Shown here: positions 19,370-43,497 of the stretch, piece after piece
Layout: each line of letters begins with the position of its first letter
Numbering within the stretch: the first letter of the stretch is position 1
NCBI RefSeq assembly: GCF_910592395.1
Contig: NC_088326.1
Location: 8,001,001-8,065,000 of the forward strand
Origin: Lineus longissimus
Lineage: Eukaryota > Nemertea > Pilidiophora > Heteronemertea > Lineidae
Length of the DNA stretch: 64,000 nt
Reading direction: 5' to 3'
Notes under the pieces: generated by a model
Seen by the model: only the letters and a program-made list of their open reading frames with translations
Database searches by the model: none
What the model was told of the DNA's origin: nothing
Position numbers and translations under genes: made by a program

Positions 19370-22300
19370 TATAAGGGCTTTGACCGACTAGCGACCGAGG
19401 GGCCTTCTCACTGTTCCTTATTGACTGGTTTCTGAAGGAGGGACAATGCTTCTGTTTTACCATTGGCTGGTAACGGAACTGAGGGACCATTTCATATTTC
19501 CCAGATTGACCTGTTACTGACGGAGAGACAATAATACTGTTCTCCCACTGACTGTTCACTGGCAGATCACCGACTGGGTACCAACTTGCTGTTCCTTCAC
19601 TCACAGGTTTTTGACCAAGGGACAATCTCACTAATATCCCATGAATTGGTAACAGAATGAGGGACCATATCTCTGTTCTGCCTCTGACTGGTTAGTGACT
19701 GAGGGACCTTGTCACTGTAATATACCATAATTGGCAACAGACCGAGGGACGCGATTTCACTGTCCGTTCACAGACTGGTTACTGACTGGGATACCATCTT
19801 CCTGTGCTCTTACTGTTCTCCCATCCCGATGTCATCTAACTGTTCATCCATTGACTTATTAGTGAACGAGGGGCCATCTCACTGTTCATTCAGTGACTAG
19901 TTACTATTCGAGGGATCATCTCCCTGTTCATCAATTGACTAGTTACTGATCGAGGGATCATCTCCCTGTTCATCCATTGACTAGTTACTGACTAGTTACT
20001 GACCAAGGGACCATCTCACTTTTCATCCATTGACTAGTAACTGATCGAGGGATCATCTCACTGTTCATCCATTGACTAGTGACTGACCGAGGGACCATCT
20101 CACTTTTCATCCATTGACTAGTTACTGACCGAGGAGTCATCTCCCTGTTCATCCATTGACTAGTTACTGATCGAGGGATCATCTCCCTGTTCACCCATTG
20201 ACTAGTTTTTGACCGAGGGATCATCTCCCTGTTCATCCATTGACTAGTTACTGATCGAGGGATCATCTTAGTGTTCATCTATTGACTAGTTACTGACCGA
20301 GGGACCATCTCACTGTTCATCCATTGACTAGTTACTGATCGAGGGATCATCTCACTGTTCATCCATTGACTAGTTACTGATCGAGGGATCATCTCACTGT
20401 TCATCCATTGACTAGTTACTGACCGAGGGACCATCTCACTGTTCATCCATTGACTAGTTACTGATCGAAGGATCATCTCACTGTCCATCCTTTGACTAGT
20501 TATTGACCGAGGGACCATCTCACTGTCCATCCATTGACTATTTATTGACCGAGGGACCATCTCACTGTCCATCGATTGACTAGTTACTGACCGAGGGACC
20601 ATCTCACTGTTCATCCATTAACTAGTTATTGACCGAGGGACCATCTCACTGTTCATCCATTGACTAGTTACTGACTTGGGGACCATCTCACTGTCCATCC
20701 ATTGACTAGTTATTGACCGAGGGACCATCTCACTGTCCATCCATTGACTAGTTATTGACCGGGGGACCATCTCACTGTCCATCGATTGACTAGTTACTGA
20801 CCGAGGGACCATCTCACTGTTCATCCATTGACTAGTTACTGACCGAGGGATCATTTCCCTGTTCATCCATTGACTAGTTACTGATCGAAGGATCATCTCC
20901 CTGTTCATCCATTGACTAGTTACTGACCGAGGGACCATCTCACTGTTCATCCATTGACTAGTTACTGACCGAGGGATCATCTCCCTGTTCATCCATTGAC
21001 TAGTTACTGATCGAAGGATCATCTCCCTGTTCATCCATTGACTAGTTACTGACCGAGGGATCATCTCCCTGTTCATCCATTGATTAGTTATTGACCGAGG
21101 GACCATCTCACTGTTCATCCATTGACTAGTTACTGACCGAGGGGTCATCTCTCTGTTCATCCATTGACTAATTAGTGACCGAGGGACCATCTCATTGTTC
21201 ATCCATTGACTAGTTGCTGACTTGGGGACCATCTCACTGTTCATCCATTGACTAGTTACTGACCGAGGGACCATCTCACTTTTCATCCACTGACTAGTTA
21301 CTGACCGAGGGACCATCTCACTGTTCATCCATTGACTAATTAGTGACCGAGGGACAATCTCATTGTTCATCCATTGACTGGTTACCGACCGAGGGATCAT
21401 CTCCCTGTTCATCCATTGACTAGTTACTGACCGAGGGACCATCTCATTGTTCATCCATTGACAAATTAGTGACCGAGGGACCATCTCATTGTTCATCCAT
21501 TGACTGGTTACTGACCAAGGGACCATCTCACTGTTCATGCATTGACTAGTTATTGACCGAGGGACAATCTCACTTTTCATCCATTGACTAGTTACTGACC
21601 GAGGGGTCATCTCCATGTTCATCCATTGACTAATTAGTGACCGAGGGACCATCTCACTGTTCATCCATTGACTAGTTACTGACCGAGGGACCATCTCACT
21701 GTTCATCCATTGACTAGTTACTGACCGAGGGACCATCTCGCTGTTCATCCACTGACTAGTTACTGACCGAGGGACCATCTCACTGTTCGTCCATTGACTA
21801 GTTACTGACCGAGGGACCATCTCACTGTTCATCCATTGACTAGTTACTGACCGAGGGACTATCTCACTGTTCATCCATTGACTAGTTACTGACCGAGGGA
21901 CCATCTCACTGTTCATCCATTGACTAGTTACTGACCGAGGGACCATCTCACTGTCCATCCATTGACTAGTTACTGATCGAGGGATCATCTCCCTGTTCAC
22001 CCATTGACTAGTTTTTGACCGAGGGATCATCTCCCTGTTCATCCATTGACTAGTTACTGATCGAGGGATCATCTTAGTGTTCATCTATTGACTAGTTACT
22101 GACCGAGGGACCATCTCACTGTTCATCCATTGACTAGTTACTGACTAGTTACTGACCAAGGGACCATCTCACTTTTCATCCATTGACTAGTAACTGATCG
22201 AGGGATCATCTCACTGTTCATCCATTGACTAGTGACTGACCGAGGGACCATCTCACTTTTCATCCATTGACTAGTTACTGACCGAGGAGTCATCTCCCTG

Positions 22301-25300
22301 TTCATCCATTGACTAGTTACTGATCGAGGGATCATCTCCCTGTTCACCCATTGACTAGTTTTTGACCGAGGGATCATCTCCCTGTTCATCCATTGACTAG
22401 TTACTGATCGAGGGATCATCTTAGTGTTCATCTATTGACTAGTTACTGACCGAGGGACCATCTCACTGTTCATCCATTGACTAGTTACTGATCGAGGGAT
22501 CATCTCACTGTTCATCCATTGACTAGTTACTGATCGAGGGATCATCTCACTGTTCATCCATTGACTAGTTACTGACCGAGGGACCATCTCACTGTTCATC
22601 CATTGACTAGTTACTGATCGAAGGATCATCTCACTGTCCATCCTTTGACTAGTTATTGACCGAGGGACCATCTCACTGTCCATCCATTGACTATTTATTG
22701 ACCGAGGGACCATCTCACTGTCCATCGATTGACTAGTTACTGACCGAGGGACCATCTCACTGTTCATCCATTGACTAGTTATTGACCGAGGGACCATCTC
22801 ACTGTTCATCCATTGACTAGTTACTGACTTGGGGACCATCTCACTGTCCATCCATTGACTAGTTATTGACCGAGGGACCATCTCACTGTCCATCCATTGA
22901 CTAGTTATTGACCGGGGGACCATCTCACTGTCCATCGATTGACTAGTTACTGACCGAAGGACCATCTCACTGTTCATCCATTGACTAGTTACTGACCGAG
23001 GGATCATTTCCCTGTTCATCCATTGACTAGTTACTGATCGAAGGATCATCTCCCTGTTCATCCATTGACTAGTTACTGACCGAGGGACCATCTCACTGTT
23101 CATCCATTGACTAGTTACTGACCGAGGGATCATCTCCCTGTTCATCTATTGACTAGTTACTGATCGAAGGATCATCTCCCTGGTCATCCATTGACTAGTT
23201 ACTGACCGAGGGATCATCTCCCTGTTCATCCATTGATTAGTTATTGACCGAGGGACCATCTCACTGTTCATCCATTGACTAGTTACTGACCGAGGGGTCA
23301 TCTCTCTGTTCATCCATTGACTAATTAGTGACCGAGGGACCATCTCATTGTTCATCCATTGACTAGTTGCTGACTTGGGGACCATCTCACTGTTCATCCA
23401 TTGACTAGTTACTGACCGAGGGACCATCTCACTTTTCATCCACTGACTAGTTACTGACCGAGGGACCATCTCACTGTTCATCCATTGACTAATTAGTGAC
23501 CGAGGGACAATCTCATTGTTCATCCATTGACTGGTTACCGACCGAGGGATCATCTCCCTGTTCATCCATTGACTAGTTACTGACCGAGGGACCATCTCAT
23601 TGTTCATCCATTGACAAATTAGTGACCGAGGGACCATCTCATTGTTCATCCATTGACTGGTTACTGACCAAGGGACCATCTCACTGTTCATGCATTGACT
23701 AGTTATTGACAGAGGGACAATCTCACTTTTCATCCATTGACTAGTTACTGACCGAGGGGTCATCTCCATGTTCATCCATTGACTAATTAGTGACCGAGGG
23801 ACCATCTCACTGTTCATCCATTGACTAGTTACTGACCGAGGGACCATCTCACTGTTCATCCATTGACTAGTTACTGACCGAGGGACCATCTCGCTGTTCA
23901 TCCACTGACTAGTTACTGACCGAGGGACCATCTCACTGTCCATCCATTGACTAGTTATTGACCGAGGGACCATCTCACTGTCCATCCATTGACTAGTTAT
24001 TGACCGAGGGACCATCTCACTGTCCATCGATTGACTAGTTACTGACCGAGGGACCATCTCACTGTTCATCCATTGACTAGTTACTGACCGAGGGACCATC
24101 TCACTGTTCATCCATTGACTAATTACTGACCGAGGGACCATCTCACTGTCCATCCTTTGACTAGTTATTGACCGAGGGACCATCTCACTGTCCATCCATT
24201 GACTAGTTATTTACCGAGGGACCATCTCACTGTCCATCGATTGACTAGTTACTGACCGAGGGACCATCTCACTGTTCATCCATTGACTAGTTACTGACCG
24301 AGGGACCATCTCACTGTTCATCCATTGACTAGTTACTGACCGAGGGACCATCTCACTGTCCATCCATTGACTAGTTATTGACCGAGGGACCATCTCACTG
24401 TCCATCCATTGACTAGTTATTGACCGAGGGACCATCTCACTGTCCATCCATTGACTAGTTACTGACCGAGGGACCATCTCACTGTTCATCCATTGACTAA
24501 TTAGTGACCGAGGGACCATCTCATTGTTCATCCATCGACTAGTTACTGACCAAGGGATCATCTCACTGTCCATCCATTTACTAGTAAGTGACCGAGGGAC
24601 CATCTCAGTGTTTATCCGATGACTATTTACTGACCAAGGCGCCATCTTACTGTTCATCCATTGACCAGTCACTGTTAATCCATTGACTTGTTACTGACCG
24701 AGGGACCATCTCAGTCTTCATCCACTGACTGAAGGACCATGTCATTTTTCCCCAACTGACTTGAAACAGACCAAATGAACATCTCATCGTTCCCACTGAC
24801 CCGTAAGAGTGTAAGGAGCTGTTTTGCTGTTTTCCCACTGACTAATCACAGACTGAGGAACCATCTCACTAAGATCCCATCTGACTTCTTCCTGACTGAA
24901 GAACGATCTTACTCTTCCTTCACTGACTTGTCGCTGACAAGGGGACAAATTCGATGTCTCTTCACTGACTGATTACAGACTCGGGGACAATCTCACTGTT
25001 CCCTACGGACAGGTAAGAGACTGATCGACCATCACACTGTTCCTTTACTGACTGGTAACAGATATTAGGACCATCTCACTAGTATCCCACTCTCTGGTAA
25101 CTTACTGTGGGACCATCTCATTGTTTTCCCATTGACTGGCTGGTTACTGGCTTGGGGACCATGTCACTCTTCATTCATTGACTAGTTATCAACTGAGGGG
25201 CCATCTAACTGTTCTCCCACTGATTGGAAACTGACTTGGGGATCACCACACAGTACCTTCACTGACTTGTAATAGACCATCTCATTCTTCCTGACAGATT

Positions 25301-25818: not shown

Positions 25819-25959
25819 ATGATAGACTCTGAGTTCACAGAAAAACTGAAAATAAAAAGGCACATGAACATGAAGGTCAAATGTACATGTAATATCACAA
25901 CATCTTCTTATTCATCAGCGACATCAATCTTAAACCTCTGCAGATTATTGATCATCAAC

Positions 25960-27410
25960 ATGGAGAAGAATCAATCAAAACTAAAATACAAGGACGGAAG
26001 AAAAATCCAGAAGGAGCAATCCGACACTGGGAAGAAGCTGTCCAGACGGGATAAAGAACTTTTGAAGGCTGTCAGAAGAGGCAATACTGAGTTGGTGAAG
26101 GAGAAGTTAGAGAGAGGTGCAAATGTAAATATGAGAAAAAATGACTGCTTTCGTCGTAGAGAGCCTTCTCACTTTTCATCATGGAAAGGTCACAAAGCAC
26201 TGATTAGAGCTATAGCTAATGTCGGTATCAAAAAAAGAGATCATGATACTGCCTTGCTTTTATCATCAGAGAAAGGTTACATTGACATGTCCAAGGCATT
26301 GATTGAAGCTAAAGCTGATGTCAATGTCAAGAATGTAGATGATGTTACTGCCTTGCATTTATCATCAAGGAATGGTCACATTGATATTGTGAAGGCATTG
26401 ATCGCAGCTAAAGCTGATGTCAATATCAAGGATATCTATGATAATACTGCCTTGCATTTATCATCAAGGAATGGTCGCATAGACATTGCCAAGACATTGA
26501 TGGAAGCTAAAGCTGATGTCAATGTCAAGTATATGGACAATCAGACAGGTTTGCATTTAGTGTTAAATGAAAAGGATCGCATTGATATTGCAAAGGTATT
26601 GATTGAAGCTGATAATACTGACGTCAATATCGGATTATAACAAAAACACGTATCTTCATTTGGCATCATTGAAAGGGAACATCCTAATTGTTCAGAAGCT
26701 GCTAGAATGCAAGGCCGACCCAAATCTAAAAATTGACCAAGGATTAAAACCTGTCCTTCTTGCGGCATTAAATGGGCATACAGAAACTATACGAGAACTT
26801 TTCAATGGTGGTGCGAAGATAGATGTCAATGATCTTGGTGAACTATCTTTAATGCATCTCGTGCTCATAGAATCGGCCCCAACATCGTTGAAGTTTGTGA
26901 TATCTGATGAAATTAATTGTAACGCGGTAGGGAATTACGGCAGGACAATTCTCCATCTTGCGGTGCATCTTGGGTGCCATGTACATATGAAATGCTTATT
27001 AGCTTTCGCAGGAATCCATGTGAATTTAAAGGACTAATTGGGAAAAACCCCTCTTTATTATGACAGTGAAATAGGGAATATAGAGGCCGCCACTGACCTC
27101 CTCCGTGCTGGTCATGAGTTGCATGTTTTGGATAATACAAAAAAATAGGTTCTGCACATTGCCTCAATCTATGGACACTGTGGGCTTGTGAAACTCTTTA
27201 TTAGTGAAGGTTTAGACCCTTATCAGGTCGACAAATTTGGAAGGAATTGTCTCCATTATGCTGTTTTGTATCGAAACGAGGCTCTAGTGCGTGATTTACT
27301 CGAGACGCTTGAAAAGTCTAAATTAAACACTGTGGATTCAAATGAGAAAACGCCAAAACAGTATTTGTGTGGTTGTGAGGGAAACAGTTTGATATTAAGA
27401 TTACTCGATG
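25960..27410 (+). pseudogene. Ankyrin-repeat region of the fusion gene
   Basis: The likely start is the ATG at 25960 (MEKNQSKLKYKDGRKIQ); an earlier in-frame ATG at 25819 adds 47 residues with no clear domain. After a basic stretch, about eleven ankyrin units follow. Clear ones read TALHLSSRNGHIDIVKALI then AAKADVNIKD, NTYLHLASLKGNILIVQKL then LECKADPN, TILHLAVHLGC, VLHIASIYGHCGLVKLFI and NCLHYAVLYRNEALVRDLL. The frame moves by one base near 26625, and stops lie at 27035 and about 27147; ankyrin sequence continues in frame past both, showing the stops are secondary. A short linker with ending GIEEFRLKEYDSFHP leads into the enzyme domain. Confidence 0.85.
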
Positions 27411-27479
27411 GAAAAACATTAGGGATTGAGGAATTCAGGCTGAAAGAATATGACTCATTCCACCCGGATAGTTCAAAAT

Positions 27480-28230
27480 GTCTTCGTGAATCAGAAATAT
27501 CAAAACAAGAATACTTAGGATCAGTGAATGCAATCAAGGGACATGATATGAATGTATTCATTGCAGATGTTAAGAAACAAGTGGAAGAGATAATTCGTAG
27601 TGCAATACCCGAGAGTGATTCTGTTGAAGTCATCGGTGTTGGTAGTTCTTTTGAAGGCACAAAGAATGGACTCCCAGATGAGTTGGACTTCATCATCAAG
27701 TTGTTCCATGTCAAATCCAGTTGCATTGAACAGGAAGGATATGGGAAGATGGAGAGGGACGAGAAGGAGGTAAAGCGACTCAATATCATCGGGTCGTACG
27801 GAATGTGGTTGTGGCAGAAGCTGATGACGTATTGGTTAAATGCTTAATCGAGGGCACGACAACACGAAGGGTAGTAATATGGAAGCGTAGGAAATTTGAG
27901 ATGCCGCTACCTCCACAGCGACATCCTGACCGTAAGACTTGCACAACGTGGACCTGGTTGTATAGTGATGGTATGTTCAACGACTTACCTGTGTCCATTG
28001 ATTTCGTCCCAGCAATTGAGAATTACATAAGTGCTTCTAAGACAAGATCAACATGGGTGATGAAAGAATCTGATATGAAACGGAGGGAATGTTACATTGT
28101 GCCAAAGATACCACACGAGAACAGTGTGCTGTCAACCCATTTCAGATACGATGACGCTAATCAGCTTGGACGGGTTTCGTACCCAACTCTAGAAGTAGAA
28201 CACTTAAAGGCCTTAGACATGTTAGATTTA
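27480..28230 (+). pseudogene. cGAS/Mab-21-type nucleotidyltransferase core, N-terminal half
   Basis: The block VIGVGSSFEGTKNGLPDELD (27633-27692) has the fold signature of the family: a GS motif, the spaced EGTK, then an acidic pair E-L-D equivalent to the first two metal-binding residues. After a frame change between 27780 and 27805 comes RNVVVAEADDVLVKCLIE, then a basic strand, WLYSDGMFNDLPVSIDFVPAI (27957-28018) with the third catalytic Asp (SID), and RECYIVPKIPHENS. All three acidic positions are present, so the ancestral protein was probably catalytic and not a Mab-21-like inactive form. The sequence stops at 28230 where the insertion begins (KALDMLDLRN, then TGA). Confidence 0.8.
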
Positions 28231-28403
28231 AGGAATTGAACCCGAGGCGGAGGACCTTGGTTGAGTTACCAAGACACTCGAGGGTGGAGCTAAAATACAG
28301 TCCAAAACCCGAGCCGATAGGCGAGGGTTTGGACGAAATTTTAGCTCCACCCGAGAGTGTCTTGGTAACTCAACCAAGGTCCGAAGCCGAGGGTTCAATT
28401 TCT
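28231..28403. mobile_element. Foldback (palindromic) element
   Basis: Two long inverted arms meet here. GGACCTTGGTTGAGTTACCA at 28252 and its complement TGGTAACTCAACCAAGGTCC at 28363 are perfect, and the outer ends AATTGAACCC and GGGTTCAATT also pair. The arms (about 75 bp each) flank a short loop with GAGCCGATAGGCGAGG. It starts exactly where the nucleotidyltransferase frame breaks. Next to it, ATTCTAAAATACCT (28404-28417) is the exact complement of 30753-30766 at the far edge of the insertion. Confidence 0.75.
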
Positions 28404-28495
28404 ATTCTAAAATACCTCAAAATTAAAAAGATAGGCCACGAAAATAACTTGAATATGTGCGAATTTGGCAAATTCCATCCATCGCCTGCCCGGAG

Positions 28496-29444
28496 GCGAA
28501 ATTTTTTTCTGCAGGATACTTCTGCCATAGTGTACATCTGACAGCCAATCAGAATTCAAGGCAAGCACGTGTCTTTGTTGACATCATCTTTCCACATGGC
28601 GCAATAATGTCAACAATGCCACGTGTTCTGATAATCTTGGAAAGAACAAGTTAGCAAATGGTTGGAGGAGTATATTAGCTAAAATATATTTATTTGCAGT
28701 ATCTTAACATGTATTTTCATTGTCGTCAATGTCGAGTGGACTGTATTTATTGGACTTGTCTGTTAAAGGCGCACTGTGCTCGGCAAAATAGCCGAGGTTG
28801 AATGTTTATCTGTCAACCGTGTAACTAGTTCTGCTGTATATGCATAGGTGGCGCCACCATTCAATTTATTTTGTTTGCTTGTCAAAATGTGTTTTATACA
28901 ATGGCCCTTCAACAATGTTCAAACTACCAAAATAGGCCTGATACCTTCAACAAACAGCAGACATCGGATACACTGTCCCTTTAATAATTATCAACATTGG
29001 CAACACTGTCAGTGTCACTGCCCCTTAAAATTTCACAAATCGCGAGACATCGGATACACTGTCCCTTTAATGATTATCAACATTGGCAACACTGTCAGTG
29101 TCACTACCCCTTAAAATTTCACAAATCAATGCATGCACTGCAATGTAGCGATCAGATCAGCTGATGCCTCTTTTGTACGCATAATATCATCAATTTTACA
29201 ATGAATCTGTGCAATTCATTCCTAAACACTACGACACAAACCTTGAGTTGAGCATAATTGGGGTCAGACAATGAACTATTGTCACATTCACAGTTGAAGT
29301 GGCACTCGGCATGCGACTCGGTATCGTCCATTGTATTTGCATTATCATGCATAAATAAACAGTGTGACGTCAAAGATCGCGCCAATTGTGATTGGCTGTC
29401 AGATGTACACTGTGGCAGAAGTATCCTGCAGAAAAAAATTTCGC
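28496..29444. mobile_element. TIR transposable element, copy A
   Basis: A 949-bp element has terminal inverted repeats of about 56 bp (28496-28551 and 29389-29444; outermost bases GCGAAATTTTTTTCTGCAGG). It is flanked by TGCCCGGAG at 28487-28495 and again at 29445-29453. It encodes no transposase. Internally an 88-bp block with ATACACTGTCCCTTTAAT and CACTGTCAGTGTCACT is present twice. A 9-bp duplication is typical of Mutator-like elements, among others, so membership there is a suggestion only. Confidence 0.8.
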
Positions 29445-29453
29445 TGCCCGGAG

Positions 29454-30389
29454 GCGAAATTTTTTTCTGCAGGATACTTCTGCCATAGTGTACATCTGAC
29501 AGCCAATCAGAATTCAAGGCAAGCACGTGTCTTTGTTGACATCATCTTTCCACATGGCGCAATAATGTCCACAATGCCACGTGTTCTGATAATCTTGGAA
29601 AGAACAAGTTAGCAAATGGTTAGAGGAGTATATTAGCTAAAATATATTTATTTGCAGTATCTTAACATGTATTTTCATTGTCGAGTGGACTGTATTTATT
29701 GGACTTGTCTGTTAAAGGCGCACTGTGCTCGGCAAAATAGCCGAGGTTAAATGTTTATCTGTCAACCGTGTAACTAGTTCTGCTGTATATGCATAGGTGG
29801 CGCCACCATTCAATTTATTTTGTTTGCTTGTCAAAATGTGTTTTATACAATGGCCCTTCAACAATGTTCAAACTACCAAAATAGGCCTGATACCTTCAAC
29901 AGCAGACATCGGATACACTGTCCCTTTAATAATTATCAACATTGGCAACACTGTCAGTGTCACTGCCCCTTAAAATTTCACAAATCGCGAGACATCGGAT
30001 ACACTGTCCCTTTAATAATTATCAACATTGGCAACACAGTCAGTGTCACTGCCCCTCAAAATTTCACAAATCAATGCATGCACTGCAATGTAGCGATCAG
30101 ATCAGCTGATGCCTCTTTTGTACGCATAATATCATCAACTTTACAATAAATCTGTGCAATTCATTCCTAAACACTACGACACAAACCTTGAGTTGAGCAT
30201 AATTGGGGTCAGACAATGAACTATTGTCACATTCACAGTTGAAGTGGCACTCGGCATGCGACTCGGTATCGTCCATTGTATTTGCATTATCATGCATAAA
30301 TAAACAGTGTGACGTCAAAGATCGCGCCAATTGTGATTGGCTGTCAGATGTACACTGTGGCAGAAGTATCCTGCAGAAAAAAAATTCGC
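29454..30389. mobile_element. TIR transposable element, copy B
   Basis: This 936-bp element is about 97% like copy A by eye and in the same orientation, separated only by the shared 9-bp TGCCCGGAG; a third TGCCCGGAG follows at 30390-30398. It lacks a 9-base internal duplication of copy A near 28725 and four bases near 28957. Its right TIR and the facing TIRs at the A/B junction form a near-perfect 56-bp-arm palindrome around 29449. Confidence 0.8.
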
Positions 30390-30398
30390 TGCCCGGAG

Positions 30399-30759
30399 CG
30401 CCGGTAGCGCCGTTGTTTACATTATGTTACGGCAGCGCGCATAGGAAGTCCGCATCGGCTCGCTCAAGTGATGCTAAAATCCGCGCAAATGGGCTATTTG
30501 GAGCGTTTTCTCAGCAAATATGTGTAGTGCTCATTAAAAAACTTAGGGTGGTTGATGCTTCCTTGGCTGATTTGTGTTTGAAGCAGTGTTTTGAGAGCCT
30601 CAAACTTCTGAAGTGAGCTGTGTGCATGGTTTCCACATTTTAGTGCAACCCGAGGGAACTTTGGTAGAGCATCTTGGTTGCGTGTCCAAAACACTCCACT
30701 CTCAGAACGAGGCTTATGCATTTTCCATTTAAAAGTTGACTTTACGGTACCAAGGTATT
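30399..30759. other. Remaining part of the insertion
   Basis: About 360 bp lie between the TIR pair and the point where the nucleotidyltransferase frame resumes. I see no coding homology except that the resumed frame is open from 30736. It may be the remains of the element into which the TIR copies jumped. Confidence 0.35.
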
Positions 30760-31200
30760 TTAGAATTGCGAATAAAAAACGTATATATAACAGCTAAGTG
30801 TTTAAGAAAACCTGAGGTGTGCAGGTTCAAAATCAAGAATGAAAAAGGGGAGGTCCAGGCAGCAAGTGAGTTTGTTACAAGCTATCCATTAAAATCAGTG
30901 TTTCTGCATCTAGTTCTGCTATTCATCAAGTCGAAAATGTCACTGGGGAAAATGGTACTGATGTTGTATGAACAGTTGGAGACATGCCTCGAGAGAGGGA
31001 TTCTTCCGATGTTCTTTGACCCCAACGTGAACGTTCTGGCTGGATCCAAGTTGAGTGCAGAAGAGAGTCTCGTAGTAACCAGGATGATGACAAGGTTTGT
31101 CAGGGCGCTGTACGAGAGGGATTACTCATCAGAGATGGAGACGGACTCTGAAGAAGAATCTAAGGCAATCGAAATGGCAAAAACAGCACATGCAAGGTAG
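30760..31200 (+). pseudogene. cGAS/Mab-21-type nucleotidyltransferase, C-terminal half
   Basis: The frame reads LELRIKNVYITAKCLRKPEV, then ASEFVTSYPLKSVFLHLVLL, LGKMVLMLYEQLETCLERG and ILPMFFDPNVNVLAG. SYPLKSVFLHL and CL..G.LP.FF.P..N.L are the helical C-lobe signature of Mab-21/cGAS proteins (compare SYHLKT..LH and LPHYFIP in relatives). It ends in an acidic tail and TAG at 31198; 84 further in-frame codons to 31461, rich in Arg and Glu, may be a read-through tail if the TAG is a lesion. TTAGAATTG at 30760 resembles TTAGATTTA at 28222; the two are in the same frame, so the insertion can be removed without shifting the frame. No zinc ribbon like that of vertebrate cGAS is seen. Confidence 0.75.
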
Positions 31201-31469
31201 GCCTACGATGAGGATATGCGTATCTATGAACATAATTTGAGCAAATGGAGAGCTGAATCAAATAACATTTGGTGGATGCCGCGCTTTCAATCAAGGGAAT
31301 TTGAAGAATCAGGGGGAATCAGAGGAATCAGAGGAATCAGAGTATCCAGGGTCAGAAGATGGATTCGTAACATCGAAGCCAAAGGAAGCAGTCCTACATT
31401 TCTATATCCTAGAAAACCTTCACCAGATTATAGAAAAGAGAAAGCAAGCAAACAAAGATGAATTAATTT

Positions 31470-34079: not shown

Positions 34080-34304
34080 TTTTGCGGACTCCAGCTTGAT
34101 ATTGTCGGAGCGAATTCAAAGACTGGACAACATGGGTTCCTTTTGCGGAGTCACTTTATTTATTCATACTACACATAAGCAAGCATGTATACTACACATA
34201 AGCAAGCATGTATACTACAAGTTACAAACTTAGTATAGGTGGCAGCACCAATCAAGTCAGCTATAGTTTGTTCCGAAATAAGAACCACACTAAAGTCTAC
34301 AACA
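34080..34304 (-). repeat. 3' LTR of the BEL/Pao element
   Basis: 225 bp; read on minus it starts TGTTGTAGAC and ends at GGAGTCCGCAAAA. It contains a 21-bp direct repeat (two adjacent copies of ACTACACATAAGCAAGCATGT). Confidence 0.85.
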
Positions 34305-34318
34305 TTCTCCCCCATTGG
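34305..34318 (-). promoter_or_regulatory. Polypurine tract of the BEL/Pao element
   Basis: On minus, AATGGGGGAGAA directly precedes the TGTTGTAG start of the 3' LTR. Confidence 0.7.
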
Positions 34319-35226
34319 AGGATCCAATACTTTCATCTTTGCTTAATATACATTTATGGCACTCTTTGCAAGGATAATATAAATTTCAGTATTGACGGAC
34401 ATTACTAATTAACATTTAAACACTTAAACAACTAAACTAAACACTTAACTTTAACTCAAAAAATTTCTGAATTACTGAACTTAGCTTAACTTCTGATTTG
34501 TCATTGTCAAATGCAATGTCAATCCGGACTTATCCAGTACATCTTACTTCACTTATTCTTTTGATTCTGTCCTTACAACTGTTGGGAGAGCTATGCTTGT
34601 TTCACTTATACATCTTGTGCCATTACACATGGACTTATTTACTTCGGTAACACATACCTTTTAACATATTTGATGAAGTCTACATGTTTCTTCTGTTCAT
34701 CAATCAAAGATAGTGTACTTTTTTTTTTTACATTTCCTAATTTTACACACAATTATACTTCTATGGTTGTCTGAGAGACAAACGCCCAATATCTTATACT
34801 ACAATGGAACTACTATTTCTTTAAAACATTGCAGTGTACTTAAATCTTCATACTGTTTTAAACAACTTTTTCCAGATTTTATACACACCAACATATGACA
34901 TCAACATTACCTACAGATAACATACTTACAGACAACTAAAATTCACAAACAGTGTAAACCAATTTGAACAAACACAGTGTAAACTTTTTTTGTATTTTGT
35001 ACCGATTACTCAGACTAACAAATTTCATCACACATTTAACCTGAAGCCCAATTCACAGTCATGAAAGTTTATCACACAGCGACACAAATAGTTCTTTTAT
35101 CACAGTACATGTGGATTATAACGGATCTCATAGACACATCTTTAGAGTAAATCACCCATGTCTACACATCCAATCTCTTTTTGGGTTTGATCACTCTCCC
35201 CAGACGTGTCTTCACAGCCTTGTCTT
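34319..35226 (-). other. 3' untranslated region of the BEL/Pao element
   Basis: Lies between the pol stop codon and the polypurine tract. AT-rich, with no further reading frame. Confidence 0.6.
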
Positions 35227-37560
35227 TTAGTTGGTTACTGGTATTATGAGTGCTCTGTGCACCAGTTGCTGTGTCAGTTTTCCCTGCCTTACCCTGACCT
35301 GTAGTAGAATGAACTGATGGAGCAGTCTTTTTTGAACTACCGCTAATGGGGTAATGTTTTTACTGTCTCCATCTTGTTCAGCCTGTACATGCACTTCAAG
35401 ATCATGCAGTCTCTGTACTGACCTCACAACAGTACCACCTTTGGTTTTCAACTCAACACTTCTGACCAAACCATCTCTTCCTGGGAAGAGTTTAGTGACC
35501 ACTCCAATAGGCCACTGCATCCTAGGGGTGTTGTCTTCCTTAATCAGAACCATATGACCTATGTCTAAACTACCTTTTGCCTGATGTTTGTTGACAGTCG
35601 GTGGGAGATTGCGCACATAATCTTTGGACCAAACTGACCAAAACAGGTCAATTTGTCTCTGACGTATCAATTGACTTTCAGTGAGAATTTCCTGAGAGAT
35701 GACCCTTTCATCCTCAGACACAGCAGTTTGGTAGCTAGTGTGTTTGCCCAACAGAAAATGAGATGGAGTCAGAGGTCTGATACCATCTACTTGATCACCC
35801 ACGAAAGTCAGAGGTCTGTCATTGATACATGCCTCAATCTCACATAGACTGGTTTCTAGTTCTGTCCTGGTTATACATCGGTTACCAACTGTTTTCTTCA
35901 ATGCCTTTTTTACAGATTGGACGAGACGTTCCCACCATCCTCCCCACCAGGGAGAACGCGGAACAATGTACTTCCACTTGATACCACTGGAACCTGATAA
36001 CTTGGCTAACATTTTTTCAGTGGCTTTGAAAGTTTTAGCATTGTCTGAGTAGAGGATAGTGGGACATCCACGTCGAGACATGAATCTTCTCAAAGCTAAC
36101 ACACAGTCATCACGACTTAATGATGCTGTCAACTCAAGATGTATCGCTCTAACCACTCCACATGTAAATAACAGTATGTAAAACTTGTGACCTGGAAAGT
36201 CTACACAATACACCGGCCCAGCAAAATCTAGGCCCGTCACTGAGAAAACAGGGGCTTCATGTACCCTCAATTCTGGTAAAGGGGCAGCAACTTGGTTGCA
36301 AGCTAATGCATCTACTCTTTGACACCTAACACAAGATCTTTTGACCGCTTTGGCCAAATGTCTGAGTCCTATAACCCAGTAGTTGTCTCTGATGGTCGTA
36401 ATCATGGCCTCTACACCCGCATGTTTTGCCCTGAAATGTTCAGACCTGATAAGAAGTGTGGCAAACCTGCCCTTGGGCACGATGACTGGATGTTTTTCAG
36501 CATATGTCAGCTGAGAGTTTTCTAACCTACCACCAATCCTTACTAACCCATCTTTTCCAATGGCTGGATTTAACTTTAACAATGGTGATGATTTTCCTAC
36601 AGACTTTCCCTGTTTCAGGGCTTCAATCTCAGCACTATATGCCACACTCTGCACGTGTTTCAACAAAATCTGTTTTGCCGTTGCATACTCTTGTAAGGAC
36701 AATTTTCCAGAGACATGTTGCTTTGTTTTATCCATGTTTTGGAGTACTCTCACGACCCAAGCTGTGATTCTAATTGCTTTCTCAAGTGTACCCCATCTCT
36801 CAACTTTGAGAACATCTTCTGGCAACCACACTCTAGCTACATTTACAATGGCCACAGTTTCTGGCTGAAGGAACCGCTCTACCTGATCAAACATCACTTT
36901 GTCTTTGCCCAGTACTAATGATCCAGCTAGCCAACTAGGTCCCGACAACCACTGTTTGGAGGAGACCAATTCTCCTGCAAGAACACCTCTAGTCATGATA
37001 TCTGCTGGGTTCCCTCTACCAGGGCAGTGAGACCACTGTTCAACATCTGTCAGTTCTTGAATTTCAAGAACTCGGTTAGCAACGAAAGTTTTCCAACGAG
37101 AATGTTTACCTTTAATCCAACCTAGAGCTACAGTAGAGTCTGTCCAATACCTACACATTGTGTCAGATGGAAGTTTCAAGGCTTTCAGCACGAAGCTGAC
37201 CACACGAGCACACAACAGAGCACCAAGCAATTCTAATCTTGGGAGTGAAACCTTTTTTACTGGTGTAACTCTAACCCTGGATGTGACTAGTGAAACCTCA
37301 TAGCTGCCATCTGAACAGGGAATGCGCAGGTATACCACAGCTCCGTAACCTTGTTCTGAGGCATCACCAAACCCATGAACCTCAACTCCAGTCAAATTTG
37401 ACCACAATGACAAGCCGTAGCGTCTTGGAATTCTCCACTGTTGTACCTCAGTCAAACCTTGCACCCATCTCATAAACCTATCATGAAGTGGGGCTGGAAC
37501 ATTGTCATCCCAATCCAGTTTCAACAACCATATTTCTTGCAACAAATTTTTGAGATACAT
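35227..37560 (-). CDS. pol: BEL/Pao pol, RNase H and integrase part (after in-frame stop)
   Basis: This 777-codon frame continues the upstream frame in register after TAG 37573-37575; the first Met at 37560 is not a true start. Order: RNase H segment (VHGFGDASEQGYGAVVYLR, then TDSTVALGWIKG), integrase zinc region (HFRAKHAGVEAM, then CVRCQR), integrase core with the D, D, E residues in TGLDFAGPVY, TILYSDNAKTF and WWGGWWERLVQSVKK, and a C-terminal DUF5641-type domain (DLFWSVWSKDYV to QRLHDLEV). All catalytic residues look intact. The tail after RLHDLEV is low in conservation. Confidence 0.9.
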   Translation of the reverse strand: MYLKNLLQEIWLLKLDWDDNVPAPLHDRFMRWVQGLTEVQQWRIPRRYGLSLWSNLTGVEVHGFGDASEQGYGAVVYLRIPCSDGSYEVSLVTSRVRVTPVKKVSLPRLELLGALLCARVVSFVLKALKLPSDTMCRYWTDSTVALGWIKGKHSRWKTFVANRVLEIQELTDVEQWSHCPGRGNPADIMTRGVLAGELVSSKQWLSGPSWLAGSLVLGKDKVMFDQVERFLQPETVAIVNVARVWLPEDVLKVERWGTLEKAIRITAWVVRVLQNMDKTKQHVSGKLSLQEYATAKQILLKHVQSVAYSAEIEALKQGKSVGKSSPLLKLNPAIGKDGLVRIGGRLENSQLTYAEKHPVIVPKGRFATLLIRSEHFRAKHAGVEAMITTIRDNYWVIGLRHLAKAVKRSCVRCQRVDALACNQVAAPLPELRVHEAPVFSVTGLDFAGPVYCVDFPGHKFYILLFTCGVVRAIHLELTASLSRDDCVLALRRFMSRRGCPTILYSDNAKTFKATEKMLAKLSGSSGIKWKYIVPRSPWWGGWWERLVQSVKKALKKTVGNRCITRTELETSLCEIEACINDRPLTFVGDQVDGIRPLTPSHFLLGKHTSYQTAVSEDERVISQEILTESQLIRQRQIDLFWSVWSKDYVRNLPPTVNKHQAKGSLDIGHMVLIKEDNTPRMQWPIGVVTKLFPGRDGLVRSVELKTKGGTVVRSVQRLHDLEVHVQAEQDGDSKNITPLAVVQKRLLHQFILLQVRVRQGKLTQQLVHRALIIPVTN

Positions 37561-37572
37561 GATGTAGGGTGA

Positions 37573-40500
37573 CTAGAAACCAAACGGGTCAAACAACCTC
37601 GCTATGAAGCTCAAAACAACTCTTTTGGTTGTGACAATCTGTGTAGGGATGTCAACTCCATCAAATGCAAAACAGTCTTCTGTTTTCAACCACTTCAGCC
37701 CAAGTATCTTTGTTGATACAGTACCAGAGTGAGAATCAAACTCGTGTATGAACATGTATTTGATTACCTCATTGTTAGAGTTGCACTTTGCCAATGACAG
37801 ACTACCTTCTTTTAGAATCTTTTGACCATTACGAAACAACTCACAAGTCTCATCTTCATAATCAGCCCCAGTGATCCAATCATCAACATACAAATTTTCC
37901 TTCAGTTCCTCGACAGCAGTAGAGGTTTCAGAATCAGAGTACTGAGACAGATGGTGGCGGATGGTGGCATTTAAGAGAAATGGACTGGCTGTATTGCCAA
38001 ATGGGACACGCAAGAATTTCATCACCCTATCTTTCCCATCTTTTGTCCACATGAAGCGATGGACATCCTGATCTTCCTTGTTGACGGCAATCTGTAGGAA
38101 AGCTTTGGTGATGTCACTGGTCATCGCCACCCGCCATCGTCTGAATCTGATTAGAATGTCTAATAGACCTGGCAACAAGTTGGGTCCTGACTCAATGCAA
38201 TCATTCAGTGACACTCCGTTAGCCCCCTTAGCTGAGGCGTCAAACACAGGTCGAATTTTGGTAGTCAACTTTGACTCTTTTATGACTGGGAAATGGGGTA
38301 GATAAAATACGGGGCGCTCATCATTTGGTACAATTTCTGTCTGAGGTACTTCCTGAACGATTCCAAGAGTCTCTAGTTCGACCAAGGCTTCATCATACCG
38401 ACCCCTTAACACTGGGTTCTTAGAGAGTTTACAGTTTAAACTTTGTAACCGGCCTTCTGCCAAATTTCTATTATTCAACAGCGATGGCTTAGCACCTTCT
38501 TTCCATGGAAGTCTAACTACATACCTATCATCTTTGAACTCAACCGTTTCAGTGAATTGTTTCATGATTATCATATCTGTTCCAAGACTCGACTCTCCGT
38601 TATCGGTCATACCAATGGACTCTAGGTCCCAAAACTTGGAGAGCGTCGCGTCTGGAATATCTGACAAATTCAGTAAATTATGACTAACACTAACATGACT
38701 GACTATAGCAGTTGACTGGCTTGGTGTCTCACTCAGACCATTTGAGTAAGACCCAGACAATACCCACCCAAAGATGGTGTCTTGAGCTACAAGACCAGTG
38801 GTGACCTGTATGAAACCCTGTTTAACAAATTTCCAATACATGTCAAGGCCAATCAAGATGTCAACTGTGACTTTTTTATCCGTGTCGTAGTCATCTGCTA
38901 TGTTCAGATGACCAAGTGATTTCAATAAGTGGTTTGGTACCCTTGGTCGTTCCATAGGTGGACTAATCGCTTTCACTTTGACAACATTAAGTGATCTTGT
39001 GACACCGTCATTTGCCTGCATATCCAGGCTGTGTACATTATGTACCTTACTGGCTGATGAAGAACTTGCACCAAAGGCTGCAAAGGACATGTTTTTGGCA
39101 GTCACCCACTTAGGACCGATTTTCTCCACAAAATCAGAACAAACACATGAGGTATCAGACCCAGAGTCGAACATTACAGTTGCTTCAGCTGAACCCCTCT
39201 CGCCTTTAACGAGGACGCGGGCAACCTGGGGTACAGTCAAAACCCCCTCGGTAGAACAGGACACACCTACATGCGATGTGACCGGTTTCATGGAGTTCCG
39301 ATCTGCAGCCCCAGACTGACCTGAATTGGAGGGATTCTTCTGAGCAGCTCTCCTACTCGGATCACACATAAGTTCATTGTGCCTGCCTTTGCAAGCCCTA
39401 CATCTGGCCATGCAACCTTTTGCCAGGTGACCTCTCAAAAGGCAGCGAAAACAAGCTCCACTGTCCTTGATCAACTTGTGGCGTTCACTAAGCGATATTT
39501 TCTTCACATCCCAGCATTTATCAGACGGATGTTTTTTGGAACAAAACACACAGTTGTTACTGTCACTATTCGAATTCTCCCCACTGCTGAACATTGCTGA
39601 GGCAGTAGGAACTCGTTGCTTAACTATCTGCTTGCTCAACGAAGGCGATGCACATGCACTCGGTTGTGCTGATAAATTCATGTCTTTGAATGTCTCTGCT
39701 CGTTCACGACGTTGAATTTCCAATTTAAGAAATTCCAAAAGACCAATCAAGTTGCTCTCTTTCCCAGCACCATTTCGAGCCCACTCCATTCTGATATCAT
39801 TGGGCAGTCTAGACAAGATGAGTGGCGTGAGAAACAGACCATACGTTCCCCCATTGACACCGAGGGACTCCAAATTTCTAACATGTGTCTGTATTGTGTC
39901 CTGTAGGGACCACAAACCTCGAACAGTCGGAGACGGTAGCGAAACATTCAGCAAGGCTTGGATATGGGAAAATATCAGTCGATCCCTATTGCCAAATCGC
40001 TCCCTCAGGAGCTCGATAGCAGCACTATAGTTATCTTTTGTGATGCTCAGACCTGTCACCACTGACTTCGCCTCCCCCTCTAGGAGAGAGGTCAGGTATG
40101 CGAATTTTGTTACGACAGGAATGTCTCTATTGTCATGTACTATTGTCACAAACTTTTCATAGAATGCCTGCCATTCTGTCAGCACTCCAGAGAAACGTGG
40201 TAGTTCCAACTTAGGTAGCTTTGCCTGACAGGAACTCACAGTTTTAACTACTTTTGTACTCGCACCAACACTAGGACTCAACGGCTCCTTTTTATGCACG
40301 TGTGCTTCTAAAAGTTCCTGTGCTGTACGGTACGACTTCTTAACTGCGTCCCGCCACGCACCGTGCGAATCGATCTCAGCTGCCAATTCTTTTTCATCTA
40401 ATTCACACTCTATTTCTGTTTGAATATTGTCCACTTTTCTTAAAAACTGCTCAAACTCTTTCATGTCCTCCTTTAATCTGCACAGGTTTACTGGTACCTC

Positions 40501-40623
40501 ACTCAAAGTTTGGTCAATCGCCATCTTGGTTCGGGTGCACCAGCCTTTACATGCCGATTTAGACTTTTTCAATCTCTTTATACTGTCCTCATCCGGCATC
40601 TTCAGTTTTAAAATGTGACTCAA
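37573..40623 (-). CDS. gag-pol: BEL/Pao gag, protease and reverse transcriptase part
   Basis: This 1016-codon frame starts MSHILKLKMPDEDS. Around residues 140-300 is the DUF1759-type capsid region (LPRFSGVLTEWQAFYEKF). Two or three CCHC-like knuckles lie at 358-420 (CVFCSKKHPSDKC, CFRCLLRGHLAKGC). The aspartic protease motif ATVMFDSGSDTSC is at about 481-493. Reverse transcriptase follows (IRPVFDASAKGANGVSLND, MTSDITKAFLQIAV, ENLYVDDWITGA with the YVDD box). It ends FIARLFDPFGF then TAG, where relatives normally continue into SP and the RNase H linker, as does the next frame here. Read-through or a point mutation is needed for the downstream enzymes. Confidence 0.9.
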   Translation of the reverse strand: MSHILKLKMPDEDSIKRLKKSKSACKGWCTRTKMAIDQTLSEVPVNLCRLKEDMKEFEQFLRKVDNIQTEIECELDEKELAAEIDSHGAWRDAVKKSYRTAQELLEAHVHKKEPLSPSVGASTKVVKTVSSCQAKLPKLELPRFSGVLTEWQAFYEKFVTIVHDNRDIPVVTKFAYLTSLLEGEAKSVVTGLSITKDNYSAAIELLRERFGNRDRLIFSHIQALLNVSLPSPTVRGLWSLQDTIQTHVRNLESLGVNGGTYGLFLTPLILSRLPNDIRMEWARNGAGKESNLIGLLEFLKLEIQRRERAETFKDMNLSAQPSACASPSLSKQIVKQRVPTASAMFSSGENSNSDSNNCVFCSKKHPSDKCWDVKKISLSERHKLIKDSGACFRCLLRGHLAKGCMARCRACKGRHNELMCDPSRRAAQKNPSNSGQSGAADRNSMKPVTSHVGVSCSTEGVLTVPQVARVLVKGERGSAEATVMFDSGSDTSCVCSDFVEKIGPKWVTAKNMSFAAFGASSSSASKVHNVHSLDMQANDGVTRSLNVVKVKAISPPMERPRVPNHLLKSLGHLNIADDYDTDKKVTVDILIGLDMYWKFVKQGFIQVTTGLVAQDTIFGWVLSGSYSNGLSETPSQSTAIVSHVSVSHNLLNLSDIPDATLSKFWDLESIGMTDNGESSLGTDMIIMKQFTETVEFKDDRYVVRLPWKEGAKPSLLNNRNLAEGRLQSLNCKLSKNPVLRGRYDEALVELETLGIVQEVPQTEIVPNDERPVFYLPHFPVIKESKLTTKIRPVFDASAKGANGVSLNDCIESGPNLLPGLLDILIRFRRWRVAMTSDITKAFLQIAVNKEDQDVHRFMWTKDGKDRVMKFLRVPFGNTASPFLLNATIRHHLSQYSDSETSTAVEELKENLYVDDWITGADYEDETCELFRNGQKILKEGSLSLAKCNSNNEVIKYMFIHEFDSHSGTVSTKILGLKWLKTEDCFAFDGVDIPTQIVTTKRVVLSFIARLFDPFGF

Positions 40624-40697
40624 ATGGTTTACAATATACTTATCTAAAAGTCCTTTATGTTCAAGTTAAAATTTCGGCACCAATTTTGATCAGGGTT
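40624..40697 (-). promoter_or_regulatory. Leader of the BEL/Pao element next to gag
   Basis: On minus it contains ATTGGTGCCGAAATTTTAAC, which begins TGG as a primer-binding site should. A second TGG-starting candidate (TGGCAACACCCT) abuts the 5' LTR at 43495. The TIR insertion now separates the two; which one is used is undetermined. Confidence 0.45.
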
Positions 40698-41268
40698 CGC
40701 CAGTCTACCTCTCTGGCTGGGCACCACCTCCACAGCTAGGAACCTCTCTGACCAGGCGCCACGGATGCGCATGCTCCGTTTGGATCTATTCCGTTTCCGT
40801 TTTGATCACTTCCGGTAACGCAGGCGCATTGAAGTTGAGGAAAATATTAACTTAATATCGTATCCGTATTTCGCTTAGCTAATGCCTGAAATGCAGTGGC
40901 AGTGCCCAATCATGGCATAGTGATAGTAGTAAGGTGGATGCCCCATAGACATAGACAGTCATACTATGTACTGTAACGTAAATCATGAAATACAGGCCAC
41001 AGGCACAGCACAGGGCGTCTCCAAAAAAGGTAATCCTGACAGAACAGAAGGGGTCAATACTGATTTGATTGCATACTTTTAAATACGGGAAGCTGATTGC
41101 CTATACTGCAGCACAAGAGACCAACTTGTCACCGAGCAGTCCGAACCTGGAACCAGCTTCCAGAAGCAACAAGATCAGCTGAGACTGCCGAGGAGTTCCT
41201 GCCGAGTGCTCCAAGCCTCCCATCAGTAGACAACAAGCACGCCTTTTTTAATCAAGACTTTTTTTCAG

Positions 41269-42116
41269 ATTCAAAGTTTTATTTGTACAAGTATTCAATT
41301 GCATATAAAGGCCAGGGACACATACAATGCTTTTTTCACTTGGTGGTGCCTGGCTGTGGAGGTAACCTGCTCTCGACCATTTCAAGAGAAATGACTGAAA
41401 TGTTCTGTTATTAACACAGTTTACCCAATATTGAACAGATTCAAAGTTTTATTTGTTCAAGTAATCAAATGTATAAGGCCAGGGACACATACACTGCTTT
41501 TTTCACTTGGTGGTGCCTGGCTGTGGAGGTAACCTGCTCTCGACCATTTCAAGAGAAAAGACTATGAAATGTTCTGTTATTAACACAGTTTACCCAATAT
41601 TGAACAGACTCAAAGTTTTATTTATCCAAGTAATCAATTGTATAAGGCCAGGGACACATAGACTGCTTTTATAACTGGTGGTGCCTGACTGTGGAGGTAA
41701 CCTGCTCTCGACCATTTCAAGAGAAAAGACTATGAAATGTTCTGTTATTAACACAGTTTACCCAATATTGAACAGACTCAAAGTTTTATTTATCCAAGTA
41801 ATCAATTGTATAAGGCCAGGGACACATAGACTGCTTTTTCAACTTGATGGTGCCTGGCTGTGGAGGTAACCTGCTCTCGACCATTTCAAGTGAAATGACT
41901 ATGAAATGTTCTGTAATTAACACAGTTTACCCAATATTGAACAGATTCAAAGTTTTATTTATCCAAGTATTCAATTGTATGAGGCCAGGGACACATAGAC
42001 TGCTGTTTTCACTTGGTGGTGCCTGGCTGTGGAGGTAACCTGCTCTCGACCATTTCAAGTGAAATGACTATGAAATGTTCTGTAATTAACACAGTTTACC
42101 CAATATTGAACAGATT
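41269..42116. repeat. ~170-bp tandem repeat, five copies
   Basis: TTCAAAGTTTTATTTRT starts near 41269, 41441, 41608, 41777 and 41947 (one reads CTCAAAG). Each unit also has GGCCAGGGACACATA and GGTAACCTGCTCTCGACC. The segment CCTGGCTGTGGAGGT resembles part of the surrounding TIR, so the array may have grown from a TIR fragment. Confidence 0.85.
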
Positions 42117-42778
42117 GGGTTATTGATCAGTTTGGAAGAAACTTCTTTGAAATATTCAATATTGGGTGGATTGTGGTAATAACTTTATAGTCATTTTACT
42201 TTAAAAGTCAAGAGTGGTATTCATTGATTGTAGTCACAGTGTAAAATGTTCAATTCTCATCAGGAGGTTTTTATTAATAGATATGCGAATGTGTCCACTG
42301 AACAAAATTGTTGTAATTCAAATGATGTCTATTGATTGATTAATAAATACATCTTTAAAACTAAATCGTGTGGTCATTTCATTACTTGGACCCTTCAGCC
42401 TGGAAATTCTTCTTCTTTGTGTTCATTTCCATCTAACAGACTCTCCAGACTTACTAGTAATCAGAAGCGGAGTTGGTGTTCGTCAGCCGGTCAAGTCTCC
42501 CTCCTCAACGCTGCAAGCGTTGGGCATCTTCCAAGGATGTGCTGTACAGTCATTGGCTCGATCTGGGGGGTGTCGCTATCTCCTTACTCCTAGACAGAAG
42601 CCTGGAACAAGCTGGACATCGGGCAGCAAACCCAATATTAATGTGCTCAGAACACTTCTCAAGTAATTAGTGTTTCTAGTGATCTATAGCCTATACCTAA
42701 TACAATAGTGATGGTTTCGGGCAGGGCTAAGAGGAGGCTTAGAGTAACGAGACTAGTATATAGCAGGCCCGGGAAAGC

Positions 42779-42936
42779 AGGGGCGTAGGTAGCAGAGGGG
42801 GGGGGGCAAATGCCCCCTCCCCCCGAGGTCACCAAAATATGTGTTTTTGGCCAAAATATTTCATAAAGGGTCATTTTGTCCCCCAGAGAGCCTTTTGCCC
42901 CCCCCCCCGCCAGACCAAAAAGCTAGCTACGCCCCT
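42779..42936. mobile_element. Small MITE with C/G-rich ends
   Basis: Ends AGGGGCGTAGGTAGC and its near complement AGCTAGCTACGCCCCT form short TIRs. The interior has GTCACCAAAATATGTGTTTT and CATTTCATAAAG-like sequence and long G and C runs. A truncated relative lies at 58088. Confidence 0.65.
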
Positions 42937-43497
42937 GGCCCTGTAGGTGTATAGTATAATTTACTCTAAGTAAGGGCAGGGCAATAAGGAAAGGTGCTAT
43001 GCTGCATGTAGGCCCTATTATATTCTATAACAAAGAAACCCAACATATGATTTAAAGGTGCCAGTGTAATAGAATCAGATGCCCCCTGATATTAAATGCC
43101 CTCAACAATAGAACACCGGCACCATTCAATAGGACTCTAAAGAGGCCAAGACCCTTCATCCGAAGAAGAACAATACAGGCGGGCATCAGGAAAGGGAGGG
43201 CATTTGATTCTATCACAGCGGAACAATATATCTCCCTTTTCCCACAAGAACTAATATTCCTCACAAAGGAATTCTAGACTGGACTTAGATTCATGGGGAC
43301 CAGCATTTCTTTTACACCCGCACGCGGAGCATGAGCTGAGCTACTACTGCACGCCAACATATCAACCAACAGCACCGCCATTTCTTCAAACGGTTGGAAG
43401 TGATACTACTAGTCACGTGCGGTTCCTGGTCAGAGAGGTTCCTAGCTGTGGAGGTGGTGCCCAGCCAGAGAGGTAGGCTGGCGGAGGGTGTTGCCAA

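What the first reader, a model, noticed from the sequence alone, without database searches (positions are those of the whole stretch)
25819..31461. Ankyrin array fused to a cGAS-like nucleotidyltransferase, now a broken gene
About eleven ankyrin units precede a nucleotidyltransferase core with GS, E-x-D and a distant Asp, and with the LPxFFxPxxNxL C-lobe signature. cGAS-like receptors in animals sense foreign RNA or DNA and make cyclic dinucleotides; an ankyrin N-terminus would suggest a different input, such as protein binding. The catalytic positions survive although the gene has two shifts, two stops and an insertion, so decay seems recent or intact paralogues exist nearby.
Basis: partly seen in the sequence, partly recalled or inferred. 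Interest (0 to 1): 0.88.

Follow-up and report, generated by a model that had tools for sequence, protein, structure and literature searches.

The report
Broken ankyrin cGAS-like gene, bootlace worm
This is a recently broken copy of a bootlace-worm gene that joins a protein-binding repeat array to a cGAS-like alarm enzyme; its many intact relatives in the same genome matter because recent copies differ most densely in two small loops that line up with places where cGAS touches DNA.

Summary
Window 25.82-31.46 kb (Lineus longissimus, a nemertean) holds one broken gene: an ankyrin array running into a cGAS-like nucleotidyltransferase. It has two frame changes, two in-frame stops, a probable third near the C end, and a 2.5 kb insert of transposon sequence. 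The three metal-site carboxylates and the C-lobe signature survive. The best intact relative examined lies on the same chromosome and is 50-63% identical. The broken copy is no more diverged than that relative and keeps 85 of 86 family-invariant residues, so death looks recent.

What appears new is in the relatives. In two separate copy sets, differences are densest in the same two loops, just after the E-x-D strand and just after the third Asp (omega about 3 and 10; about 0.8 elsewhere). These align to cGAS segments holding R222 and K335. Copies swap segments. A third cluster varies elsewhere. I read this as a diversifying ankyrin-cGLR repertoire; ligand and product are untested.

The parts
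25960..26637 (+). Ankyrin repeats, first reading frame; 25960 is the likely ATG
   Evidence: Pfam Ank E 1.3e-28 for 25822-26637; 52% identity to L014 over 26194-26631; the start is my reading by resemblance to the N ends of L029 and L030
26603..27148 (+). Ankyrin repeats, second frame, with in-frame stops at 27035-27037 and 27146-27148
   Evidence: Ank_2 E 4.4e-22 for 26603-27034; stops
27149..27844 (+). Last ankyrin units, linker and N lobe of the nucleotidyltransferase
   Evidence: Ank_2 E 6.8e-9; 21 intact group-B matches at 36-54% identity
27641..27688 (+). Catalytic motif GSSFEGTKNGLPDELD (GS, then E-x-D)
   Evidence: position
27704..27733 (+). Segment matching hypervariable loop 1 (HV1) of the intact copies
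   Evidence: homology; loop defined
27838..28218 (+). Nucleotidyltransferase core after the second frame change
   Evidence: 57% identity to L014
28000..28002 (+). Third catalytic Asp, in VSIDFV
   Evidence: the family motif aligns to the cGAS SVD
28021..28092 (+). Segment matching hypervariable loop 2 (HV2)
   Evidence: homology
28219..30756 (.). Insert of about 2.5 kb that splits the gene
   Evidence: gap between two L014 matches; exact ends not resolved
28231..28403 (.). Near-palindrome inside the insert, 79-nt arms, 85% complementary
28486..30396 (.). Two tandem copies (28486-29440 and 29444-30396) of an element with 61-68 nt inverted ends, a TIR transposon by its looks
   Evidence: 41 near-full-length places in the genome, 97-100% identical
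30757..31197 (+). C lobe (Mab-21_C), signature LPMFFDPNVNVL at 31003-31038
   Evidence: 31.3 bits, cut-off 24.1, for 30733-31197; 63% identity to L014 over 30736-31170
31198..31461 (+). Probable third in-frame stop (31198-31200) and remains of the C tail
   Evidence: L010 and P0001 alignments run on to 31281

Best explanation
SHOWN: the locus is a dead, by all signs recently dead, member of a large family of ankyrin-cGLR fusions in Lineus longissimus whose intact members are long single open frames. INFERRED: intact members are ligand-gated nucleotide second-messenger synthases. The ankyrin array scaffolds or docks the enzyme; the ligand is felt on the face of the nucleotidyltransferase formed by the loops after the E-x-D strand (HV1) and after the third Asp (HV2); binding orders the active site and the product goes to STING. 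Tandem duplication, segment exchange between copies and selection on the two loops make new specificities, and copies such as the one in the window die through small lesions and transposon insertion (birth and death). The dead copy itself most likely makes no working protein.
Against: No activity, ligand, product or transcript was tested. The STING match covers 35 of 182 positions. In the third cluster (C17, 5 copies, group A) the variable spots lie elsewhere, before the third Asp. Recombination weakens the tree-based omega test, and the loops were first picked by eye. Most variable columns by number lie outside the loops (39 of 65 and 47 of 61); it is the density that differs. Omega outside the loops is not significantly below 1 in either set. 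The invariant-residue test has little power, since intact members score 0.84-1.00 in it. PF03281 does not reach its cut-off in any of 10 group-B members scanned. Module pI of group B runs from about 5.5 to 8.9, so nucleic acid is not the obvious ligand for all. Alignment inside gapped loops is uncertain.
Confidence: 0.6

Rival explanations
1. The ankyrin array is the sensor and binds pathogen or host proteins; the variable loops are not for ligand choice but escape from pathogen inhibitors that target the enzyme.
For: Open frames differ widely in length between copies with near-identical enzyme modules (969-2005 aa in C12, 1406-2425 aa in C15), and ankyrin units are homogenised, 83-86% identical at a 99-nt step in L018, L024, L011 and L015. 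Loop selection alone does not tell ligand choice from escape.
Against: The loops align to cGAS stretches with DNA-binding residues (PMC9675814, PMC6927687, passages). I know of no inhibitor here and looked for none.
Confidence: 0.3
2. The loop pattern comes from relaxed constraint and gene conversion among young duplicates, not from positive selection.
For: Strong exchange in both sets; few synonymous changes; omega about 0.8 outside the loops, not significantly below 1; C17 differs.
Against: pN exceeds pS more than twofold in the loops of both sets, at homologous places, with the catalytic residues unchanged; relaxed constraint alone would not take omega above 1.
Confidence: 0.25
3. [quoted passage not shown]
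For: NTase core of group B is below the Pfam Mab-21 cut-off in 10 of 10 scanned; no enzyme test.
Against: All three carboxylates kept in 21 of 21 group-B loci, and the motifs align with those of cGAS.
Confidence: 0.12
4. The window copy is not dead: the lesions are assembly errors or are spliced out.
For: The insert could in principle be spliced; no reads or transcripts were seen.
Against: Two frame changes and two or three stops lie in sequence with normal homology on both sides, while 21 relatives in the same assembly show no stop inside the matched stretch.
Confidence: 0.03

Closest known systems
Ankyrin-containing cGAS-like receptors (Li et al. 2023, PMC9980059; passages read)
   Same: Ankyrin modules fused to a cGLR with a putative active site; [quoted passage not shown]
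   Different: The passages I read do not mention nemerteans, open frames of over 2000 residues, hypervariable loops or segment exchange. Group B is below the Pfam Mab-21 cut-off. I could not open the supplements.
cGAS (PDB 4k9b, 7fui)
   Different: 14-16% identity; ankyrin array in place of the cGAS N terminus; HV1 variable between copies, where PMC9675814 calls R222 conserved. Zinc thumb not examined.
Cv-cGLR1 of Crassostrea virginica (PDB 8gjw)
   Different: The solved chain (355 residues) has no ankyrin array; its full-length protein was not examined. dsDNA-activated and makes 2'3'-cUA (PMC9980059, passages); neither is tested here.
Clustered, diversifying immune receptor families such as animal and plant NLRs (recalled)
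   Same: Tandem clusters, segment exchange, selection on binding surfaces, birth and death.
   Different: Here the variable part lies in the catalytic domain of a nucleotidyltransferase, not in leucine-rich repeats.

Membership tests
cGLR by fold and active site (as in PMC9980059) | cGAS-like nucleotidyltransferase fold | tested here: met
cGLR by fold and active site (as in PMC9980059) | GS, E-x-D and third Asp | tested here: met
   Window pieces and 21 of 21 group-B loci
cGLR by fold and active site (as in PMC9980059) | Intact coding sequence | tested here: not met
   Window copy has frame changes, stops and an insert: filed as a pseudogene of the family, not as a working member
cGLR superfamily by Pfam (PMC10732462: clade plus PF03281) | PF03281 Mab-21 domain | tested here: not met
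   No hit at E <= 1 in six window pieces; below cut-off in 10 of 10 group-B members scanned. Met in 13 group-A members
cGLR superfamily by Pfam (PMC10732462: clade plus PF03281) | Place in the cGLR clade of a tree | not tested
   No tree of cGLRs was built; groups A and B are labels by similarity
cGLR superfamily by Pfam (PMC10732462: clade plus PF03281) | Mab-21_C (PF20266), my addition | tested here: met
   Window 30733-31197, 31.3 bits; over cut-off in 4 of 10 group-B members scanned
Ankyrin-cGLR fusion | Ankyrin repeats N-terminal in the same open frame | tested here: met
   10 of 10 group-B and 13 of 14 group-A frames scanned; L044 has none in its open frame. In the window the ankyrin part and the core are in order but no longer in one frame
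cGLR-STING pathway | STING in the same genome | tested here: inconclusive
   One exon matches STING_LBD positions 1-35 of 182, over cut-off
cGLR-STING pathway | Ligand-dependent cyclic dinucleotide synthesis | not testable with these tools
   Needs protein
Vertebrate cGAS proper | Zinc thumb | not tested
   Not examined

The most novel reading that the evidence does not exclude
Nemerteans carry a diversified repertoire of ankyrin-cGLRs in which two exchangeable hypervariable loops on the cGAS DNA-contact face, set on a constant catalytic core, are shuffled and selected between copies: a germline, complementarity-loop-like recognition system built into a second-messenger enzyme, hidden because annotation mostly calls the genes 'ankyrin'.
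Probability: 0.35. Interest if true: 0.88.

Novelty: new variant of a known kind. Interest (0 to 1): 0.62.

Why it matters
How animals with innate immunity only keep up with changing pathogens is an open question. If loops on the ligand face of cGLRs diversify and recombine in gene clusters, cGLRs would join NLR-like receptors as a repertoire family, and the activating ligands of the expanded invertebrate cGLRs become testable by loop swaps. It also shows a cGLR-like group that the usual Pfam scan misses.

Tried and rejected
EPSP_synthase hits on P0009 and P0011: matches of about 33 residues inside ankyrin repeats, rejected as spurious. Second copy of the gene in the window: none found (blastn; tblastn with three relatives). 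Viral contigs: no relative. Dating by dS: already saturated or nearly so between L014 and the four intact relatives tried, so not tried for the window copy; distances and invariant residues were used. HV1/HV2 as a rule for all clusters: rejected, C17 differs. PDB search with the D piece alone: best 8gjw at E 0.087, not significant; with piece E: none; with piece C the 60 rows shown of 336 are ankyrin proteins by their names and ranges. Exact ends and target-site duplication of the insert: not resolved. Full census by PF20266, by an alignment or by the L025 module: not completed. Fetched but not scanned with Pfam: L039-L041 (C17 mates), L045 and L050 (no catalytic motif in their longest frame). 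No tree of the family was built. A search for site-B residue names with whole-word matching found no paper and was redone. Paper searches were made; in the rows listed I saw no hypervariable cGLR loops and no nemertean cGLR expansion (open-access library only; for selection or hypervariability, with 12 of 9,043 and 3 of 3 papers listed; 32, 101 and 102 for nemerteans or ankyrin).
Full report
WHAT IS THERE. The window is G000:C20:8001001-8065000 of a 391 Mb assembly. P0001, 100% identical over the part compared to a frame on contig C15 and lying on a contig of the same length (16,292,257), is named Lineus longissimus, and the published genome of that worm is 391 Mb (PMC8593623, abstract in the search listing). 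The pieces 25822-26637, 26603-27034 and 27149-27844 carry ankyrin repeats; 30733-31197 carries Mab-21_C over its cut-off; the NTase profile PF03281 gives nothing. An intact frame, L014, on the same contig at 5.6 Mb aligns to 26630-27835 (50%), 27838-28218 (57%) and 30736-31170 (63%), with two in-frame stops and one frame change visible in the alignment; the other frame change lies between 26603 and 26637. GS, E-x-D and the third Asp survive.

HOW IT BROKE. The insert holds a near-palindrome and two tandem copies of a 0.95 kb element with inverted ends. That element has 41 near-full-length places in the genome at 97-100% identity, two of them in the window; two elsewhere are printed as 100% over positions 4-955 (a lower bound, 40 of 152 candidates scored). 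Family-invariant residues are kept 31 of 32, 22 of 22 and 32 of 32, and the window copy is never further from L010, L015, L018 and L028 than L014 is (11 of the 21 group-B loci were used). Intact members score 0.84-1.00 in the same test, so it has little power alone; the distances and the young element point the same way. So death looks recent. The third stop, 31198-31200, is likely a lesion too.

THE INTACT FAMILY. Of 26 matches to the piece 27149-27844 in the genome, one is the window itself (L009), one a second part of L014 (L031), one belongs to the other group (L033), two show ankyrin only in the stretch held (L032, L034), and 21 are relatives that I call group B, in open frames of 659-2425 aa; 8 lie between 1.75 and 2.11 Mb on C12 and 5 between 13.95 and 14.04 Mb on C15, and a sixth, L016, 1.3 Mb away on C15, is counted with that set below (contents). 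Groups A and B are labels by similarity; no tree was built. Ten of the 21 were scanned: all have ankyrin, none reaches PF03281, four reach Mab-21_C. Group A has both ankyrin and PF03281 over cut-off in 13 of 14 frames scanned; the fourteenth, L044, has PF03281 and no ankyrin. PF03281 alone gave 25 places in the genome, some in frames of 308-457 aa that I did not scan. The counts are lower bounds. Ten of the 14 hits named Lineus longissimus bear ankyrin in their names, the other four are 'uncharacterized'. Related proteins with ankyrin and PF03281 occur in unnamed jgi, ena and lgn sources (precomputed domains), so the fusion is not confined to this assembly; their species are not known to me.

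HYPERVARIABLE LOOPS. In the C12 and C15 sets the module has dS below 0.08 but pairwise omega with medians 1.42 and 1.19. Differences are densest in HV1, directly after the E-x-D strand, and HV2, directly after the third Asp. pN/pS is 2.28 and 2.37 in the loops against 0.79 and 0.78 in the rest. The two most variable 12-codon windows are HV2 and HV1 in both sets, and a window just after HV1 ranks third in C12 and fourth in C15. The two sets are 45% and 47-50% identical to the window piece and saturated at silent sites against each other (L011-L018), while within sets dS is small, so they diversified separately; yet their per-site variability coincides (Spearman 0.27 over 340 sites; smoothed r 0.64, 0 of 310 circular shifts). 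Codon models give omega 3.3 and 9.8 in loops and 0.80 and 0.81 in the rest; against omega 1, 2 delta lnL is 7.5 and 10.2 in loops, 0.9 and 0.7 in the rest (my sums). HV2 net charge runs from -4 to +5 over both sets. Recombination is plain (0 of 2000 permutations in each set): L022 has 0-2 differences per 25 codons from L018 through HV1, then 15 in the bin where HV2 begins, where it has none from L019 (one in the next bin), and its HV2 residues equal those of L019. This also means that tree-based tests must be read with care. In C17, five copies of group A, the variable spots lie before the third Asp, and the C lobe shows almost no amino-acid change.

LINK TO cGAS. In one search, HV1 falls on mouse cGAS EVPRIELQEYYETG, after EFDVMFKL; the next variable window falls near KFKRIPRGNP; HV2 falls between SVDIILALES and FYLVPK. 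PMC6927687 (passages) names K240, R241, R244 and the IPRGNP loop, which fixes the numbering of those letters; my count along the printed mouse sequence then gives R222 in EVPR and K335 in GTKVR, inside the HV2 stretch. PMC9675814 (passages) calls R222 and K240 site-B residues about 6.5 A apart; PMC6927687 ties R222, K240 and R241 to nuclear tethering and reports K335E as severely defective in DNA binding; PMC13228216 (passage) groups R222/K240/R241/R244 as junction loops. So the variable loops line up with places where cGAS meets DNA. This is inference by alignment; distances on the model could not be measured.

NOVELTY. Ankyrin-cGLR fusions are in print (PMC9980059, passages: tetratricopeptide and ankyrin modules in some cGLRs; coral examples; 87% of cGLRs are single-domain). 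The searches listed under Tried and rejected showed no report of hypervariable cGLR loops or of nemertean cGLR expansion; a study of Lineus ruber immunity does not hold the words cGAS or STING in its main text (PMC9835746, find). The window copy is ordinary as a pseudogene; the family is a new variant of a known kind.

Noticed in passing
window 34080-43728: BEL/Pao-like LTR retrotransposon on the minus strand: Peptidase_A17, DUF5641, integrase zinc binding, DUF1759 and RVT_1, between direct repeats 34080-34308 and 43498-43728, 97.8% alike over 231 nt.
   Followed up: partly
window 19833-24674: 42-bp tandem array of about 115 copies just upstream of the broken gene, open over long minus-strand stretches as a 14-residue repeat.
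   Followed up: no
L036:3555-3725: STING ligand-binding-domain exon on C11 (30.1 bits; positions 1-35 of 182); the rest of the gene was not traced.
   Followed up: partly
L037-L041 (C17:0.28-0.91 Mb): Third cluster of ankyrin-cGLRs, with a long repetitive C tail of units of about 31 residues and different variable spots (two of the five scanned).
   Followed up: partly
L018, L024, L011, L015: Ankyrin units at a 99-nt step are 83-86% identical over the first 1100 nt held, against 33-49% in L010, L014 and L028, so some arrays look homogenised (7 loci tried).
   Followed up: partly
C15 set, alignment columns 530-541: A further variable spot in the C lobe (LPSFF to VNVL), seen in C15 but not among the six top windows in C12.
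   Followed up: no
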